This document shows positions 1,407-5,180 of a stretch of 5,871 bases of DNA, piece by piece. The notes below the pieces were generated by a model that saw only the letters and a program-made list of their open reading frames with translations, was not told the DNA's origin and made no database searches. The stretch's first letter is position 1. Every line of letters begins with the position of its first letter. Source of the stretch: Halanaerobiales bacterium (GTDB lineage Bacteria; Bacillota_F; Halanaerobiia; Halanaerobiales; DTU029). The DNA lies in assembly GCA_016278415.1 (NCBI GenBank), contig JADQBV010000286.1:1-5871 (forward strand), read 5' to 3'. A program made the translations under genes and the position numbers.

Positions 1407-1709
1407 TTAATCTAAACTACAATCATCTATATGCTCTTTACAAGATTCATTAATAATATCCTCAATATCTCCAGCCACTTTTAGTAAATTCTCTTTCTTA
1501 ACCACATAATGAACATAATACCCTCTCTTCTCACCCATTACCAGGTCAGCCTCTCTCAATATTTTTAGGTGTTGAGAGACGGCAGATTCTGATATCTCTA
1601 GTTTCCTGGCCAGAGCCTTAACACAAAAATTATTATGCAAAAGGAGTTTTATAAGATTTAAGCGATTTTCATCCGCAATAGCCTTTAATTTTTTTGTTAA
1701 ATCATCCAT
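1407..1709 (-). CDS. ArsR/SmtB-family metal-responsive repressor, 100 aa
   Basis: A winged-helix repressor of normal length. It has an N-terminal IADENRLNLIKLLL helix (11-24), a helix-turn-helix with CVKALARKLEISESAVSQHLKILREADLV around residues 29-57 and a wing GEKRGYYVHYVV (59-70). The C-terminal helix ends in C90-x2-H93-x3-C97, a plausible metal site at the dimer edge; C29 is the only other cysteine. It lacks the CVC motif of the ArsR at 4851-5180, so it probably senses a different ligand. The ATG follows AGGTGA with close spacing. It lies about 285 bp downstream of the split permease pair with only an ABC-gene remnant between, and has its own promoter. It is a candidate regulator of the pair, but no shared operator proves this. 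Family certain, inducer unknown. Confidence 0.94.
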   Translation of the reverse strand: MDDLTKKLKAIADENRLNLIKLLLHNNFCVKALARKLEISESAVSQHLKILREADLVMGEKRGYYVHYVVKKENLLKVAGDIEDIINESCKEHIDDCSLD

Positions 1710-1793: not shown

Positions 1794-1931
1794 CTATTTT
1801 AAATACAATTCCTGATATAATCGATTATTTTCCATCAACTCCTGATGGGTACCGATTCCGCTTATATTACCTTTTTCAAGTACAGCTATTCTATCAGCCT
1901 TCTTTAAAACTGAAAAGCCGCGGGCAATCTA
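1794..1931 (-). pseudogene. Remnant of an ABC-transporter ATPase gene (C-terminal end only)
   Basis: A 44-codon open stretch reads IARGFSVLKKADRIAVLEKG, then NISGIGTHQELMENN, RLYQELYLK and a stop. This is the very end of an exporter-type (MsbA/LmrA-like) nucleotide-binding domain. Its normal form has IAHRLS followed by xxxADRIxVLxxGxIxExGTHxELLxxxGxYxxL. Here the switch histidine of IAHRLS has become Arg and the motif reads IARGFS. The stretch is closed upstream by an in-frame TAG (1931-1929), and nothing ABC-like continues above it towards 1994. Walker A, Walker B and the signature motif are absent. It therefore looks like the decayed tail of a deleted gene, lying between the split permease genes and the downstream ArsR. 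There is no start codon or ribosome site. Recognition of the family is firm; that it is dead is nearly certain. Confidence 0.85.
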
Positions 1932-1994: not shown

Positions 1995-2519
1995 TTAAGA
2001 ACTTTTTTCTAAAATAAAATCTCTTTTATCTAAATATTTCCCCAACCAGATAGAGCTTAATATAATTAAGGGTAAAGAAGTAAATAATCTTATCATAGTA
2101 AACTTGATTCCCAAAAAGGATGATTCAAAAAGAGTCATTGGAATCCTTGTTAATGCTGCAGCACCAATATATGTAAAAACAATACTATACTTAGCCCCTT
2201 TCTGATAAAGAGAATATGCCACTGGAAAAGCTACATATGTTCCTCCCACAGTAGTACTTGCCAGTATTATTGCCATTAGAAAACCTTTAAACCCAGAATC
2301 TTTGCCAAAATGCTTTTCAATTGATTTCTTCTTAACCCATACTTCGAATAATCCAATTAATATAAATGCACATGGTAGGACCTTCAGCATACCAAAGGTA
2401 AATTCAGTAAAATTATCTTTTATTAATAATCCTGGCTCAAACCTAGTCAAATATGAAATTAATAAAAATCCTAAAAATATAGAAAATATAATTATATTCG
2501 ATCTATTTTTGCTGCTCAA
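1995..2519 (-). CDS. Half-size permease B of the ArsP/YraQ (DUF318) type
   Basis: A 174-residue inner-membrane protein with about five hydrophobic segments (roughly 9-24, 42-61, 79-103, 112-128, 140-160). The core ASTTVGGTYVAFPVAYSLYQKG (87-108) followed by a G-A-rich helix ending in TRIP matches one repeat of PF03773 permeases. Full members have two such repeats in about 330 residues, as in the gene at 3428-4423, so this is one half. It lacks the CSC motif of that protein and has a single cysteine (C50). The start is TTG, placed immediately after the TAG of half-size permease A with no gap. Its GGGGAGGT site lies inside the upstream gene, 7 nt before the TTG. The two are surely translationally coupled and probably form a heteromeric transporter. 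Substrate unknown; thiol-reactive metalloid or organometalloid export is the family-based guess. Confidence 0.88.
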   Translation of the reverse strand: MSSKNRSNIIIFSIFLGFLLISYLTRFEPGLLIKDNFTEFTFGMLKVLPCAFILIGLFEVWVKKKSIEKHFGKDSGFKGFLMAIILASTTVGGTYVAFPVAYSLYQKGAKYSIVFTYIGAAALTRIPMTLFESSFLGIKFTMIRLFTSLPLIILSSIWLGKYLDKRDFILEKSS

Positions 2520-3002
2520 CTAAATTACCTCCCCGTAGATAAGTCCAATAATCAAGGTTATAACTACTGCAATGATAAAACTTATTACATTTCTCAAGAT
2601 CGTAACTTTTGTTCCTAGGTATTCTTTTTCTACTGGATAGGTCAAGACCCCTACCAGCATTAATGTAGTTGTAAAGGCAGCTATATTCATATAACTAACA
2701 CCTTTTTCCAATAAAATACCACCTAGAGGGAAGGCTATGAATCCCGGCATCATAGTAATTGAACCAAATAAGAGACCAGCAAATAGTCCATATACTCCAG
2801 AACTTTCACCTAAATACTTAACAATAACTTCATCTGGAACAAAATATAGAATAAATGAAACCAGGATAAGCATCTTTAAAAATGCTGGTAAAATTTTAAT
2901 TATCTTCTTTAAAGCTATTTTTAGTGCTTTTTTTGTCTTATTAAAATTAAAGATTGAAGATGCAATTAATGCTACACCCGTAAATATGTATAAAATAGTC
3001 AT
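2520..3002 (-). CDS. Half-size permease A of the ArsP/YraQ (DUF318) type
   Basis: A 160-residue membrane protein with about five hydrophobic stretches (about 3-18, 37-56, 71-96, 105-122, 137-158) and a basic first loop (22-36). The central GSITMMPGFIAFPLGGILLEKG (80-101) is the counterpart of TPFCSCSSVPIFIGFIEAG in the full-length permease at 3428-4423. The proline and hydrophobic frame are kept, but both cysteines are absent; this protein has no cysteine at all. That argues that transport in this pair does not use a CxC thiolate site. The ATG follows AAAGGAG by about 7 nt. The gene starts 30 nt after the Cys/His-rich miniprotein frame and its stop abuts the TTG of permease B, so it is the middle cistron of a three-gene operon. 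Family assignment is good; substrate is not known. Confidence 0.88.
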   Translation of the reverse strand: MTILYIFTGVALIASSIFNFNKTKKALKIALKKIIKILPAFLKMLILVSFILYFVPDEVIVKYLGESSGVYGLFAGLLFGSITMMPGFIAFPLGGILLEKGVSYMNIAAFTTTLMLVGVLTYPVEKEYLGTKVTILRNVISFIIAVVITLIIGLIYGEVI

Positions 3003-3032: not shown

Positions 3033-3152
3033 TTATTCTTCTTTACATGGATGTTTATTCTCATCACCATGACACTCTTCAATTTGTTCCGGACTACATT
3101 CTCCAAGTTAACTTTTAAGTTTCTCAGGATGTTGACATTCTTTTTCAGCCAT
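3033..3152 (-). pseudogene. Cys/His-rich miniprotein gene (39 codons) interrupted by an in-frame TAA
   Basis: From the ATG at 3152 the frame reads MAEKECQHPEKLKS, then TAA (3110-3108), then LGECSPEQIEECHGDENKH, PCKEE and a final TAA. The two parts are in the same frame. If read through they give 39 residues with four cysteines (6, 19, 27, 36) and three histidines (8, 28, 34) in a CxHP...C...CH...HPC pattern, clearly metal-ligand-like and highly charged. A GGGAGG site lies about 13 nt upstream, rather far. The frame sits directly behind a consensus promoter and 30 nt before permease A. It resembles short uncharacterised proteins I associate with such permeases, but I cannot verify that here. 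A one-base change (AAA to TAA) would explain the stop. It may be a fresh pseudogene, a sequencing error or a variant. UAA is not a selenocysteine or pyrrolysine codon, so recoding is unlikely. Confidence 0.7.
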
Positions 3153-3183
3153 TATGTAATTCAAACCTCCCTTCTGTTCTCTT

Positions 3184-3211
3184 ATTTAATTTAGTATTTG
3201 ATTAATTAAAT
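3184..3211. promoter_or_regulatory. Inverted repeat after the -10 box, probable operator of the split-permease operon
   Basis: The arms ATTTAATT (3184-3191) and AATTAAAT (3204-3211) are perfect inverted copies separated by 12 bp. They begin at the -10 hexamer and cover the expected transcription start, a position where a bound ArsR dimer would block RNA polymerase. The gap contains TCAAATA (minus strand), also found in the leader palindrome at 1350-1363. The arms are pure A/T, so evidence is moderate. Confidence 0.45.
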
Positions 3212-3237
3212 TATAATACTCTTATTCCATTTGTCAA
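3210..3237 (-). promoter_or_regulatory. Consensus sigma-A promoter of the miniprotein/split-permease operon
   Basis: On the minus strand, TTGACA (3237-3232) and TATAAT (3215-3210) are both perfect consensus hexamers separated by 16 bp. Transcription should start near 3203, about 50 nt before the miniprotein ATG. A promoter this strong usually needs repression, which fits the inverted repeat immediately downstream. Confidence 0.8.
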
Positions 3238-3323
3238 GAAAGAGAACCATTGTATACCAAATTTATAATAATAATTCTTCCATAAAAAGCCATGCAAATG
3301 CCATATACCATAGGCATATAGTA

Positions 3324-3360
3324 AAGGTGTTACTTCATTTTCATAATGAAGTAACACCTT
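3324..3360 (-). terminator. Perfect 16-bp hairpin after the permease operon, possible terminator
   Basis: Arms AAGGTGTTACTTCATT (3324-3339) and AATGAAGTAACACCTT (3345-3360) pair without mismatch around a 5-nt loop. The hairpin starts about 67 bp after the permease stop and lies before the promoter of the next operon, where a terminator is expected. On the minus strand the following bases are TACTATA, so the U-tract is poor, and the plus-strand side has none. It may be a weak intrinsic terminator, an RNA-stabilising 3' hairpin or a small palindromic element. Confidence 0.5.
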
Positions 3361-3427
3361 CTCACTCTTATTATTAAAGTATATATCCTTTTTTCTACCT
3401 AGAGGCTGTTTGTTTGTGTTATATATA

Positions 3428-4423
3428 TTACACAAGTGTGTGAGCTATAAGATTAAATAGATAACCAACTATAATAATCGCTACGCCTGTTATAGTTACA
3501 AATATAGCGATAAGTTTAGGTTTAATTACTTTTCTCAATAAAATCATTGCAGGTAATGATAAAGCAGTTGTAGCCATCATAAAAGATAAAGCAGTCCCAA
3601 TTCCAACACCCTTACTAATTAGAGCCTCGGCTATAGGTATCGTCCCAATTGCATTTGAATACAGCGGTATCCCAATTATTACACCAACAAAGACTGCCAA
3701 GGGATTATCCGGTCCAGCGTATTTAGCTAATACTGGAGCCGGTGCCCAACCGTGAATAACTGCTCCTATTCCAATACCAATTAATAAATAAATCCAGACA
3801 CGCCCGACTATTTCCTTTACATTTTCCCAAGCAAAATTAATTCTTTCTTCACGGGATAAGACTTCAACTTCACTATCTCCCATTTCAATCTGATATACAT
3901 ATTCTTCAACCTGATCCTCTAGGTTGAATACACCTATTAAAATTCCTCCTACTATACCAATTAACACCCCGGTCAAAACATAAATACCAGCAATTTTCCA
4001 GCCGAAAGCAGCCAGAAGAACAGCGAAAGCAGCTTCATTAACTATAGGTGAGGTTATTAAAAAGGAAAAGGTAACACCAAGGGGTATCCCGGCTTCTATA
4101 AAACCTATGAATATTGGTACAGAAGAGCAAGAACAAAAAGGTGTAACAATACCTAATAAAGAAGCCATAATATTCCCAGTTACTCCACTAAATCTTTCTA
4201 ATATTTTTTTTGTTCTTTCAGGTGGGAAATAACTTCTAATATAAGATATTCCAAAAATCATTATTCCCAACAGTATAATAATTTTAATTGTGTCATAAAG
4301 AAAAAAATGAATACTGGAGCCCAATCTTGTCATTATAGATATGCCAAAAAGTTTTTCTACTAATAATTCCATTAATTTATCTAGCCATACAAAAATATAT
4401 CTCACCTCCAAAGGATTCAACAC
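3428..4423 (-). CDS. Full-length permease of the ArsP/YraQ (DUF318, PF03773) family
   Basis: An inner-membrane transporter of up to 331 residues with about eight hydrophobic helices. It has two internal repeats. The first contains TPFCSCSSVPIFIGFIEAG (94-112) with C97 and C99, then FLITSPIVNEAAF; the second contains GIPLYSNAIGTIPIAEALISKG (251-272). A charged cytoplasmic loop (about 168-200) joins them. ArsP members export trivalent organoarsenicals, and the two-cysteine motif suits a thiophilic substrate, but the actual substrate is not shown. The gene follows an ArsR and a CxxC thioredoxin, a common arrangement for this family. The longest frame starts at a GTG (4423) that has no ribosome site. 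A perfect GGAGGTGA (4409-4402) lies inside it, 8 nt before codon 10, an ATT (4396). The true start is therefore uncertain: GTG, that ATT, or the ATG of codon 18. A hairpin follows the stop. Confidence 0.92.
   Translation of the reverse strand: MLNPLEVRYIFVWLDKLMELLVEKLFGISIMTRLGSSIHFFLYDTIKIIILLGIMIFGISYIRSYFPPERTKKILERFSGVTGNIMASLLGIVTPFCSCSSVPIFIGFIEAGIPLGVTFSFLITSPIVNEAAFAVLLAAFGWKIAGIYVLTGVLIGIVGGILIGVFNLEDQVEEYVYQIEMGDSEVEVLSREERINFAWENVKEIVGRVWIYLLIGIGIGAVIHGWAPAPVLAKYAGPDNPLAVFVGVIIGIPLYSNAIGTIPIAEALISKGVGIGTALSFMMATTALSLPAMILLRKVIKPKLIAIFVTITGVAIIIVGYLFNLIAHTLV
4402..4409 (-). promoter_or_regulatory. Shine-Dalgarno site inside the annotated permease start
   Basis: The minus strand reads GGAGGTGA, a near-perfect complement of the 16S 3' end. 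It lies downstream of the GTG at 4423 and is spaced 8 nt (from GGAGG) from an in-frame ATT at 4396. No in-frame ATG, GTG or TTG is correctly spaced from it. The ATG in GTATGG nearby is out of frame and stops after three codons. Confidence 0.6.
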
Positions 4424-4511
4424 TCTACGGCATTTAAGTAATTAAATAGAGTAATTTAGTTCTTTACTTTAGTTTTCTAATTAACCTTATTAATTATATC
4501 TACCATGTATT

Positions 4512-4745
4512 TTACTCAAACCAAGATTTGATATCTTTAGCAGATGGAACTTTCCCGCCAGATTTCTTTTCTCCATCAACAATTACTGCTGGTGTCATCA
4601 TTACACCACGGCTGATAATCTCATCTATATCTTCAACTTTTATAACTTCAGCATCTACACCTAAATTTTTTATTTCTTTTTTAATTAATTCTGTTGTTTT
4701 TTTACACTTAGCACATCCAGTTCCCAATACCTCAATTTTTTTCAT
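4512..4745 (-). CDS. Small thioredoxin-like redox protein (redox-active disulfide protein 2 type)
   Basis: A 77-residue cytoplasmic thioredoxin-fold protein of the thioredoxin_3 kind (PF13192, TIGR00412). It opens MKKIEVLGTGCAKC, giving the CxxC redox pair C11 and C14. It then has an amphipathic helix, a VEVIKVEDIDEI-like strand-helix region and MMTPAVIVDG (about 49-58), whose TP is the cis-proline loop facing the active site. There is no signal peptide. Length is normal for the family, which lacks the first strand-helix of classical thioredoxin. The ATG follows GGAGTGA by about 8-10 nt. It lies between an ArsR and a permease, so a likely job is to reduce or hand over a thiophilic metal(loid) to the exporter or regulator. 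This is inference; the fold is clear. Confidence 0.93.
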   Translation of the reverse strand: MKKIEVLGTGCAKCKKTTELIKKEIKNLGVDAEVIKVEDIDEIISRGVMMTPAVIVDGEKKSGGKVPSAKDIKSWFE

Positions 4746-4850
4746 AAGTAATTCACTCCTTTATATTTTGTAATTTTTCTCAAAATATTATCAAGTAATA
4801 ATTTTACCCCAATATTCAAACCAATTCAATTTTTACTATAAATTAAACAT

Positions 4851-5180
4851 TTAATCTCCGAATAATTGTTCCTGACGTTTCTCTAAATCAGCTTTTAAAA
4901 TATTATCAAGACATTGAAAAAAGCTATTAACACATGGTGTTCTTAGAAAATAGTTTACATTCAACCCATCTTTTTTAGAATCTATTATTCCTGCGTTTTT
5001 TAAGACAGCTAAATGCTTTGAAACAGAAGATTGACTTACATCTAAGAATTCTGTCAGTTCACAAACACAGCGGTCACCATCTTTTGATAAAATATCAATA
5101 ATCTCCAGTCGAGTGTCATGAGCTAAGGCCTTTGCAATATTGGCTCTTGCCTTATAAATGTCTTTGTTAATAACTTTCAC
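4851..5180 (-). CDS. ArsR-family repressor with Cys-Val-Cys inducer motif
   Basis: A winged-helix repressor of about 109 residues. It has ANIAKALAHDTRLEIIDIL (13-31), then DRCVCELTEFLDVSQSSVSKHLAVLKNAG (36-64) with C38 and C40 at the start of the helix-turn-helix, a short wing (KKDGLNVNYFLRT) and a C-terminal helix carrying C83 and C90. The CVC pair sits where E. coli-type ArsR proteins bind As(III)/Sb(III), so arsenite-class induction is the best guess. C83 or C90 could complete the site. It heads the operon with the thioredoxin-like protein and permease and should repress it through the palindrome at 5235-5260. The frame opens with GTG at 5180, but the AAGGGAG site touches that GTG. It is better spaced (8 nt) for codon 4, an ATT at 5171, giving INKDIYKARANI. 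The start is therefore uncertain by three residues. Confidence 0.94.
   Translation of the reverse strand: MKVINKDIYKARANIAKALAHDTRLEIIDILSKDGDRCVCELTEFLDVSQSSVSKHLAVLKNAGIIDSKKDGLNVNYFLRTPCVNSFFQCLDNILKADLEKRQEQLFGD

What the first reader, a model, noticed from the sequence alone, without database searches (positions are those of the whole stretch)
3033..3152. Cys/His-rich miniprotein upstream of a split permease, broken by one TAA
The same frame before and after the TAA keeps a CxHP...C...CH...HPC ligand pattern, and the unit sits between a consensus promoter and two membrane genes. It looks like an unnamed small metal-binding partner or chaperone of the half-size permeases, recently inactivated or miscalled by one base (AAA to TAA). 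Standard gene callers would miss it because of its length and the stop.
Basis: partly seen in the sequence, partly recalled or inferred. Interest (0 to 1): 0.75.

Follow-up and report, generated by a model that had tools for sequence, protein, structure and literature searches.

The report
Broken miniprotein of ArsR-linked exporter operons
A 39-codon gene cut by one stop turns out to be a damaged copy of a large, unnamed family of tiny cysteine/histidine-rich proteins that often sit beside, overlap or join ArsR-type switch genes next to exporters in many anaerobic microbes.

Summary
Minus strand 3152-3033 holds a 39-residue frame with one TAA (3110-3108). Both pieces match a family of mostly intact 37-51-residue proteins that no Pfam, NCBIfam or PDB search here named; a profile search counts 2354 proteins (120 shown). 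In 22 loci ArsR and miniprotein share one open frame, and 18 of these keep a ribosome site and ATG for the miniprotein, against 7 of 132 control ATGs. Two relatives keep the window's layout intact: miniprotein, half-permease A, half-permease B, ArsR. Of 44 clear half-permease pairs, 5 have the miniprotein, all among the 7 with this ArsR. So it goes with the ArsR operon, not with the permease as such. The window copy is probably decaying; two operons of relatives lack the gene, and 2 of 117 loci have stops inside it. Metal binding is inferred, not shown.

The parts
3210..3237 (-). sigma-70 type promoter TTGACA-16-TATAAT
   Evidence: 12 of 12 consensus bases; of 7 related operons printed, 5 have TTGACA at this place, L169 and L155 a near match
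3185..3210 (-). possible ArsR operator: imperfect palindrome starting at the last base of the -10 box
   Evidence: L143, L144, L145, L159 and L169 have arms of 10-11 of 11 here (0-2 of 200 shuffles reach it); the window has only 9 of 11 (48 of 200 shuffles), and L150, L155 and L011 are no better than shuffles either
3166..3171 (-). ribosome-binding site GGGAGG, 13 bases before the ATG
   Evidence: read from the sequence
3111..3152 (-). N-terminal piece of the miniprotein, 14 codons
   Evidence: 16.1 bits to the family profile on its own
3108..3110 (-). in-frame TAA
   Evidence: stops inside the frame are rare in relatives: L006 and L094 of 117 loci checked, with L043 unclear
3033..3107 (-). 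C-terminal piece of the miniprotein, 24 codons and stop
   Evidence: 41.9 bits to the family profile on its own
2520..3002 (-). half-size PF03773 permease A
   Evidence: matches at E <= 1e-6 in 48 of 59 genomes of the class of G001
1995..2519 (-). half-size PF03773 permease B
1794..1928 (-). 44-residue C-terminal remnant of an ABC exporter ATPase
   Evidence: 57% identical over 44 residues to the exporter upstream of the operator in L159, E 7e-15 in a search of four loci
1407..1709 (-). ArsR-type repressor of the miniprotein-linked kind
   Evidence: 136.9 bits to a profile of 76 miniprotein-linked ArsRs built without the window, against 74.4 and 69.6 for the other two ArsRs of the window

Best explanation
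The feature is a TAA-interrupted, probably decaying copy of an unnamed family of Cys/His miniproteins. Intact members are accessory ligand-binding proteins of ArsR-linked (sometimes PadR-linked) exporter operons. Proposed mechanism: when a soft metal(loid) ion or a reactive sulfur species appears, ArsR leaves its operator, the operon is expressed, and the miniprotein binds the ion through about four Cys and one or two His, tuning ArsR and buffering or passing on the ion while the exporter removes it. In fused genes the module is the C-terminal tail of ArsR and is probably also made free from an internal start. Shown by sequence: the family, the neighbours, overlap and fusion, kept ribosome sites, a shared promoter layout. 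Inferred: metal binding, which ion, regulation by ArsR, and that the window copy does not work.
For: Family. At positions that the search pattern did not fix, 82 aligned members keep the first Cys in 80, the late His in 79 and the last Cys in 80; position 2 is Cys in 63 of 81. ArsR just upstream in 76 of 118 loci: 22 in one frame, 31 overlapping in another frame, 22 apart, 1 start unclear. Ribosome site before the miniprotein ATG in 18 of 22 one-frame loci against 7 of 132 control ATGs. A profile-based sample gives 33 loci, 19 with ArsR and 3 with PadR upstream; 10 of the 33 were already in the first sample, leaving 23 new: 12 ArsR, 2 PadR, 9 neither. In the class of G001, 9 of 59 genomes have the miniprotein and 24 of 59 this ArsR type, and all 9 lie among the 24 (one-sided p = 1.0e-4). 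Intact copies of the window layout: L145 (= L162) and L169. The window's own ArsR at 1407-1709 is the linked type. Next genes on the same strand are often exporters.
Against: 42 of 118 loci show no ArsR upstream (7 of these have under 300 bases of upstream sequence), and some lie after SecF, zinc-ribbon or methyltransferase genes, so the link is not universal. The next gene is on the opposite strand in 36 and absent in 12 of 118 loci. The window palindrome is not better than shuffles (48 of 200). Neither predicted structure gives a confident fold for the miniprotein: mean pLDDT 69 alone, 38-55 per block in the fusion. No metal was tested. Loci and genomes share descent, so the p values are too small.
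Confidence: 0.6

Rival explanations
1. Exporter chaperone: the miniprotein hands the ion to the transporter (as recalled for ArsD or CopZ), and ArsR is only the common switch.
For: Exporters often follow: of 70 same-strand next genes, 26 ABC ATPases, 5 TauE, 2 ArsP_1 at E 1e-5; half-permease A in 4 of 118 loci by phmmer.
Against: The transporter type varies while ArsR stays; 22 loci join the module to ArsR in one frame; joins to transporters were not searched for. Among 44 clear half-permease pairs, the 37 without this ArsR have no miniprotein.
Confidence: 0.2
2. Metallothionein-like sink: an induced, free ligand trap, as SmtA is under SmtB (recalled).
For: Small, Cys/His-rich, linked to an ArsR of SmtB-like sequence and fold; tandem repeats of the unit occur; one of 72 members matches a Pfam metallothionein model, PF05522, at the noise-level E of 0.35.
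Against: A conserved PEQI-x-x-CHG core and few Cys are unlike a plain sink; fusion to the regulator.
Confidence: 0.15
3. Not metal but thiol chemistry: the Cys set senses or carries persulfide or another soft ligand.
For: The linked ArsRs have a Cys at the start of helix 3 in 74 of 76, and most of the 21 fused ones aligned have a tail Cys; TauE follows in 5 of 70; SqrR is among the fold matches.
Against: Conserved Cys-His and His-x-Cys pairs point to metal; I recognised no sulfur-oxidation enzyme among the neighbour clusters printed, which I named by eye only.
Confidence: 0.15
4. The window gene is intact and the TAA is a sequencing or assembly error.
For: Promoter, ribosome site, six ligand residues and both permease frames are kept. 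The other stop-bearing copies (L006, L094) are from metagenome assemblies too.
Against: The near-invariant residue next to the stop is also changed, the palindrome is weaker than in five relatives, and two operons of relatives lack the gene.
Confidence: 0.2

Closest known systems
SmtA/SmtB (ArsR-type repressor with a small metallothionein; recalled)
   Same: a small Cys/His protein linked to an ArsR/SmtB-fold repressor; SmtB is the best PDB sequence match of the window ArsR, E 2e-10
   Different: different sequence pattern; beside or in one frame with the regulator and often followed by exporters; no metallothionein match above noise
ArsD in ars operons (recalled)
   Same: small Cys protein in an operon with ArsR and an efflux system
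   Different: ArsD is not among the 3 Pfam families listed for the 72 members; ArsD is recalled as more than twice as long
PF03773 (ArsP_1) permeases and the SaoE and SO_0444 efflux models
   Same: the window's half permeases and its full-length permease at 3428-4423 match PF03773
   Different: the miniprotein occurs more often beside other exporters; the NCBIfam scores of the full-length permease are far under the cut-offs, 111 against 325 and 106 against 300 bits
SqrR/BigR/HlyU thiol-sensing ArsR proteins
   Same: ArsR fold; HlyU and SqrR structures are among the fold matches of an ArsR-miniprotein fusion
   Different: I recall no such miniprotein in their operons; of those papers I saw only the search listing with the start of the abstracts

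Membership tests
Regulator-linked Cys/His miniprotein family (unnamed, defined here) | Cys, about 12 residues, C-[ST]-PEQI-x-x-C-H-G-x4-H-x-C | tested here: met
   52.5 bits for the read-through, stop as X, to a profile without the window
Regulator-linked Cys/His miniprotein family (unnamed, defined here) | one uninterrupted frame | tested here: not met
   TAA at 3110-3108: a broken member
Regulator-linked Cys/His miniprotein family (unnamed, defined here) | linked ArsR nearby (usual, 76 of 118 loci, not universal) | tested here: met
   ArsR at 1407-1709, 136.9 bits; order as in L145 and L169
Metallothioneins (Pfam) | match to a Pfam metallothionein model | tested here: not met
   one of 72 members, PF05522 at E 0.35
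ArsD | match to the Pfam ArsD model | tested here: not met
   not among the 3 families listed for 72 members at E <= 1
Named families in general | match in Pfam-A, NCBIfam or PDB sequences | tested here: not met
   best Pfam E 0.13, no NCBIfam at E <= 1, best PDB E 0.21 to short PEQ repeats; the profile holds the window's X-bearing sequence as one of 72 rows
ArsR/SmtB repressors (for window 1407-1709) | HTH_5 and metalloregulator models | tested here: met
   PF01022 E 8.5e-14; NF033788 78.1 bits, cut-off 55
Metal-binding protein | binds a metal ion | not testable with these tools
   only the ligand pattern is seen

The most novel reading that the evidence does not exclude
One widespread two-product gene: an ArsR repressor whose frame runs on into a metal trap, from which the free trap is also made by an internal start, so that the same module works as the regulator's tail and as a loose ion carrier. 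Elsewhere the same pair is split, overlapped or rearranged around interchangeable exporters.
Probability: 0.35. Interest if true: 0.78.

Novelty: new variant of a known kind. Interest (0 to 1): 0.62.

Why it matters
A family with 2354 counted proteins, found in bacteria and archaea (titles), has no Pfam or NCBIfam match here; in the part of the lists shown, the source names are mostly absent or 'hypothetical protein'. Its tie to ArsR by neighbourhood, overlap and fusion gives a direct, testable handle on what many uncharacterised ArsR-exporter operons respond to. The window copy shows how such a short gene can be lost while its operon stays.

Tried and rejected
Recoding of TAA: most stops flagged by the genome search lie before the start or at the end of the frame (checked in 46, 49, 73). 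But stops inside the frame do occur: L006 (two TAA inside) and L094 (one TAA) of 117 loci checked, L043 with an unrecognisable N-terminal part, L072 with a TGA between two tandem units, and a 16-residue remnant in G015 (L134). They lie at different places, which looks like decay or assembly error, not recoding; recoding is not strictly excluded. Viral contigs: no exact pattern match. Plasmids: no match to P0002 at E 0.01; of 4 plasmid records with a half-permease A match I fetched 3 (L001-L003), and the miniprotein pattern does not occur in them. AlphaFold of the miniprotein: too weak to use; the fusion model gives only the ArsR fold. Papers: the string SPEQIKECHG gave 0 papers; some searches gave 1, 3 and 0 papers, none of which by title or abstract start is about this family; I opened no paper. 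The library lacks most subscription journals. Three loci scored as in-frame by the first script (L041, L047, L074) are in another frame; the overlap counts were replaced by those, which use one ATG rule.

Full report
What is there. The finding's coordinates hold a small frame on the minus strand: ATG at 3152, 14 codons, TAA at 3110-3108, 24 further codons and a stop ending at 3033. A GGGAGG lies 13 bases before the ATG, and a 12-of-12 promoter at 3237-3210. Downstream are two half-size PF03773 permeases, then a remnant of an ABC exporter and an ArsR gene. A hairpin within 3319-3368 (-24.0 kcal/mol) separates this unit from the full-length permease gene upstream, so the unit is probably transcribed on its own (inference).

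It is a real gene family. The 42-residue query had 5 candidates, all with E <= 10, the best at 6.6e-13, 74% identical over the whole query. A profile of 72 sequences (66 locus peptides, 5 proteins and the window's read-through with X) counts 2354 proteins at E <= 0.01 among 4212 candidates, of which 120 are shown. The best Pfam E for any of the 72 is 0.13, and none matches an NCBIfam family at E <= 1. That pattern fixes two Cys and one His by construction. Of the positions it does not fix, the first Cys is kept in 80, the late His in 79 and the last Cys in 80 of 82 aligned members, and position 2 is Cys in 63 of 81. Those 82 were chosen from 109 loci with a usable start; the 27 left out were tandem, long, near-duplicate or dropped without a fixed rule.

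Its regular neighbour is a repressor. In 76 of 118 loci an ArsR-type gene lies upstream on the same strand, its end at most 348 bases from the motif. With one ATG rule, 22 share one open frame, 31 overlap in another frame, 22 are apart and 1 is unclear. In 20 of the 76 the ArsR stop falls at the same base, 17 before the motif, inside the miniprotein's Leu-Lys codons. Of the 22 one-frame cases 18 keep a ribosome site before the miniprotein's ATG, 3 do not and 1 has no ATG in range; of 132 ATG codons inside the ArsR genes 7 have such a site. Of 42 loci without ArsR, 7 have under 300 bases of upstream sequence.

A second look by profile: 19 of 198 and 10 of 149 genomes had matches. Merged, these are 33 loci: 19 with ArsR upstream, 3 with PadR, 11 with neither (the G002 locus is read from L104). 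Ten of the 33 were already in the first sample, so only 23 are new: 12 ArsR, 2 PadR, 9 neither. The ArsR profile was seeded from the first sample. In the class of G001, 9 of 59 genomes have the miniprotein and 24 of 59 the window's ArsR type at E <= 1e-22; all 9 are among the 24, p = 1.0e-4. Genomes share descent, so such p values are too small.

The exporter varies. For the 118 loci the next gene is on the same strand in 70, opposite in 36, absent in 12 (genes are mechanical frames). Of the 70, 26 match ABC ATPases, 5 TauE, 3 ABC-2 membrane and 2 ArsP_1; half-permease A follows in 4 of 118 loci by phmmer. Starting from half-permease A instead, 60 loci were fetched (30 from each of two searches). 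5 have the miniprotein, 8 the linked ArsR, and the 5 lie within the 8 (Fisher 1.0e-5). Not all 60 are half-size pairs: 44 are clear pairs, of which 7 have ArsR and 5 the miniprotein, and 0 of the 37 without ArsR have it (p = 1.9e-5). Flanks are about 1.5 kb and some are cut by contig ends. G002, the centre of one search, and G004 were known carriers, so the sample is not fully independent.

The window's operon in relatives. L145 (same place as L162) and L169 have the order promoter, palindrome, intact miniprotein, half-permease A, half-permease B, ArsR. The window's ArsR at 1407-1709 scores 136.9 bits against the linked-ArsR profile; the other two window ArsRs score 74.4 and 69.6. L159 and L155 keep promoter, operator region, permease and ArsR but no miniprotein; in L155, whose permease A part is 74% identical to the window's, the two half permeases form one hybrid frame. 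The palindrome in L169 is TTTAATTAAGT-n4-ACTTAATTAAA, beginning at the last base of the -10 box, and L144, L145 and L159 have nearly the same. The window has TTTAATTAATC-AAAT-ACTAAATTAAA there; its symmetry alone is not significant, nor is that of L150, L155 and L011.

Is the stop real? Undecided. Against a simple miscall: the residue after the stop is Leu where 78 of 82 members have Pro, the palindrome is weaker than in five relatives, and relatives have lost the gene. Other broken copies exist: L006 and L094 of 117 loci checked, and a remnant in G015. For a miscall: everything else is kept. As the window reads, only the 14-residue N-terminal piece can be made, as the second piece holds no ATG, GTG or TTG in frame.

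How it may work. The linked ArsRs have the fold of CzrA, SmtB, HlyU and SqrR and a Cys at the start of helix 3 in 74 of 76. With Cys at position 2, three conserved Cys further on, Cys-His and His-x-Cys, the miniprotein looks like a soft-metal or thiol ligand set; this is inference. Because the regulator recurs and the exporter changes, I place its action first on the regulator or on the shared ion, and only second on the exporter. AlphaFold does not help: mean pLDDT 69 alone and 38-55 per block over the module in the fusion.

Verdict. The window copy is a broken member; the family is the finding. It resembles SmtA under SmtB, or ArsD, in role (recalled), but met no family test for either.

Noticed in passing
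window 1794-1928: 44-residue C-terminal remnant of an ABC exporter ATPase between half-permease B and ArsR; L159 has a homologue running up to the operator region, so the cluster seems rearranged.
   Followed up: partly
window 3428-5180: A second resistance-like unit: ArsR (4851-5180), ArsE/MTH895-type thioredoxin (4512-4745) and full-length PF03773 permease (3428-4423); the window holds three ArsR genes in 5.9 kb.
   Followed up: partly
L220, L221, L240: The miniprotein follows a PadR-family regulator; in L221 and L240 its N-terminus is rich in Cys and His.
   Followed up: partly
L033, L068, L099, L110, L078, L236, L237, L238: Tandem units: two copies of the miniprotein motif in one frame.
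   Followed up: no
L004, L008, L015, L017, L018, L095 and others: ArsR and miniprotein overlap in different frames, 25 of 31 overlaps by 43 bases or more, with the ArsR stop at one fixed place in 20; the ATG-TGY start of the miniprotein gives the ArsR tail a Cys in the other frame.
   Followed up: partly
L155: The two half permeases form one shortened hybrid frame of 207 residues, apparently by internal deletion.
   Followed up: no
L151: The miniprotein motif ends a 140-residue-plus frame whose upstream part is itself Cys/His-rich; two ABC exporter genes follow.
   Followed up: no
L006, L094, L134: Further broken or remnant copies of the miniprotein, with stops at other places.
   Followed up: partly
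L228, L230: The miniprotein lies after a zinc-ribbon gene (PF09723) with extra Cys at its end.
   Followed up: no
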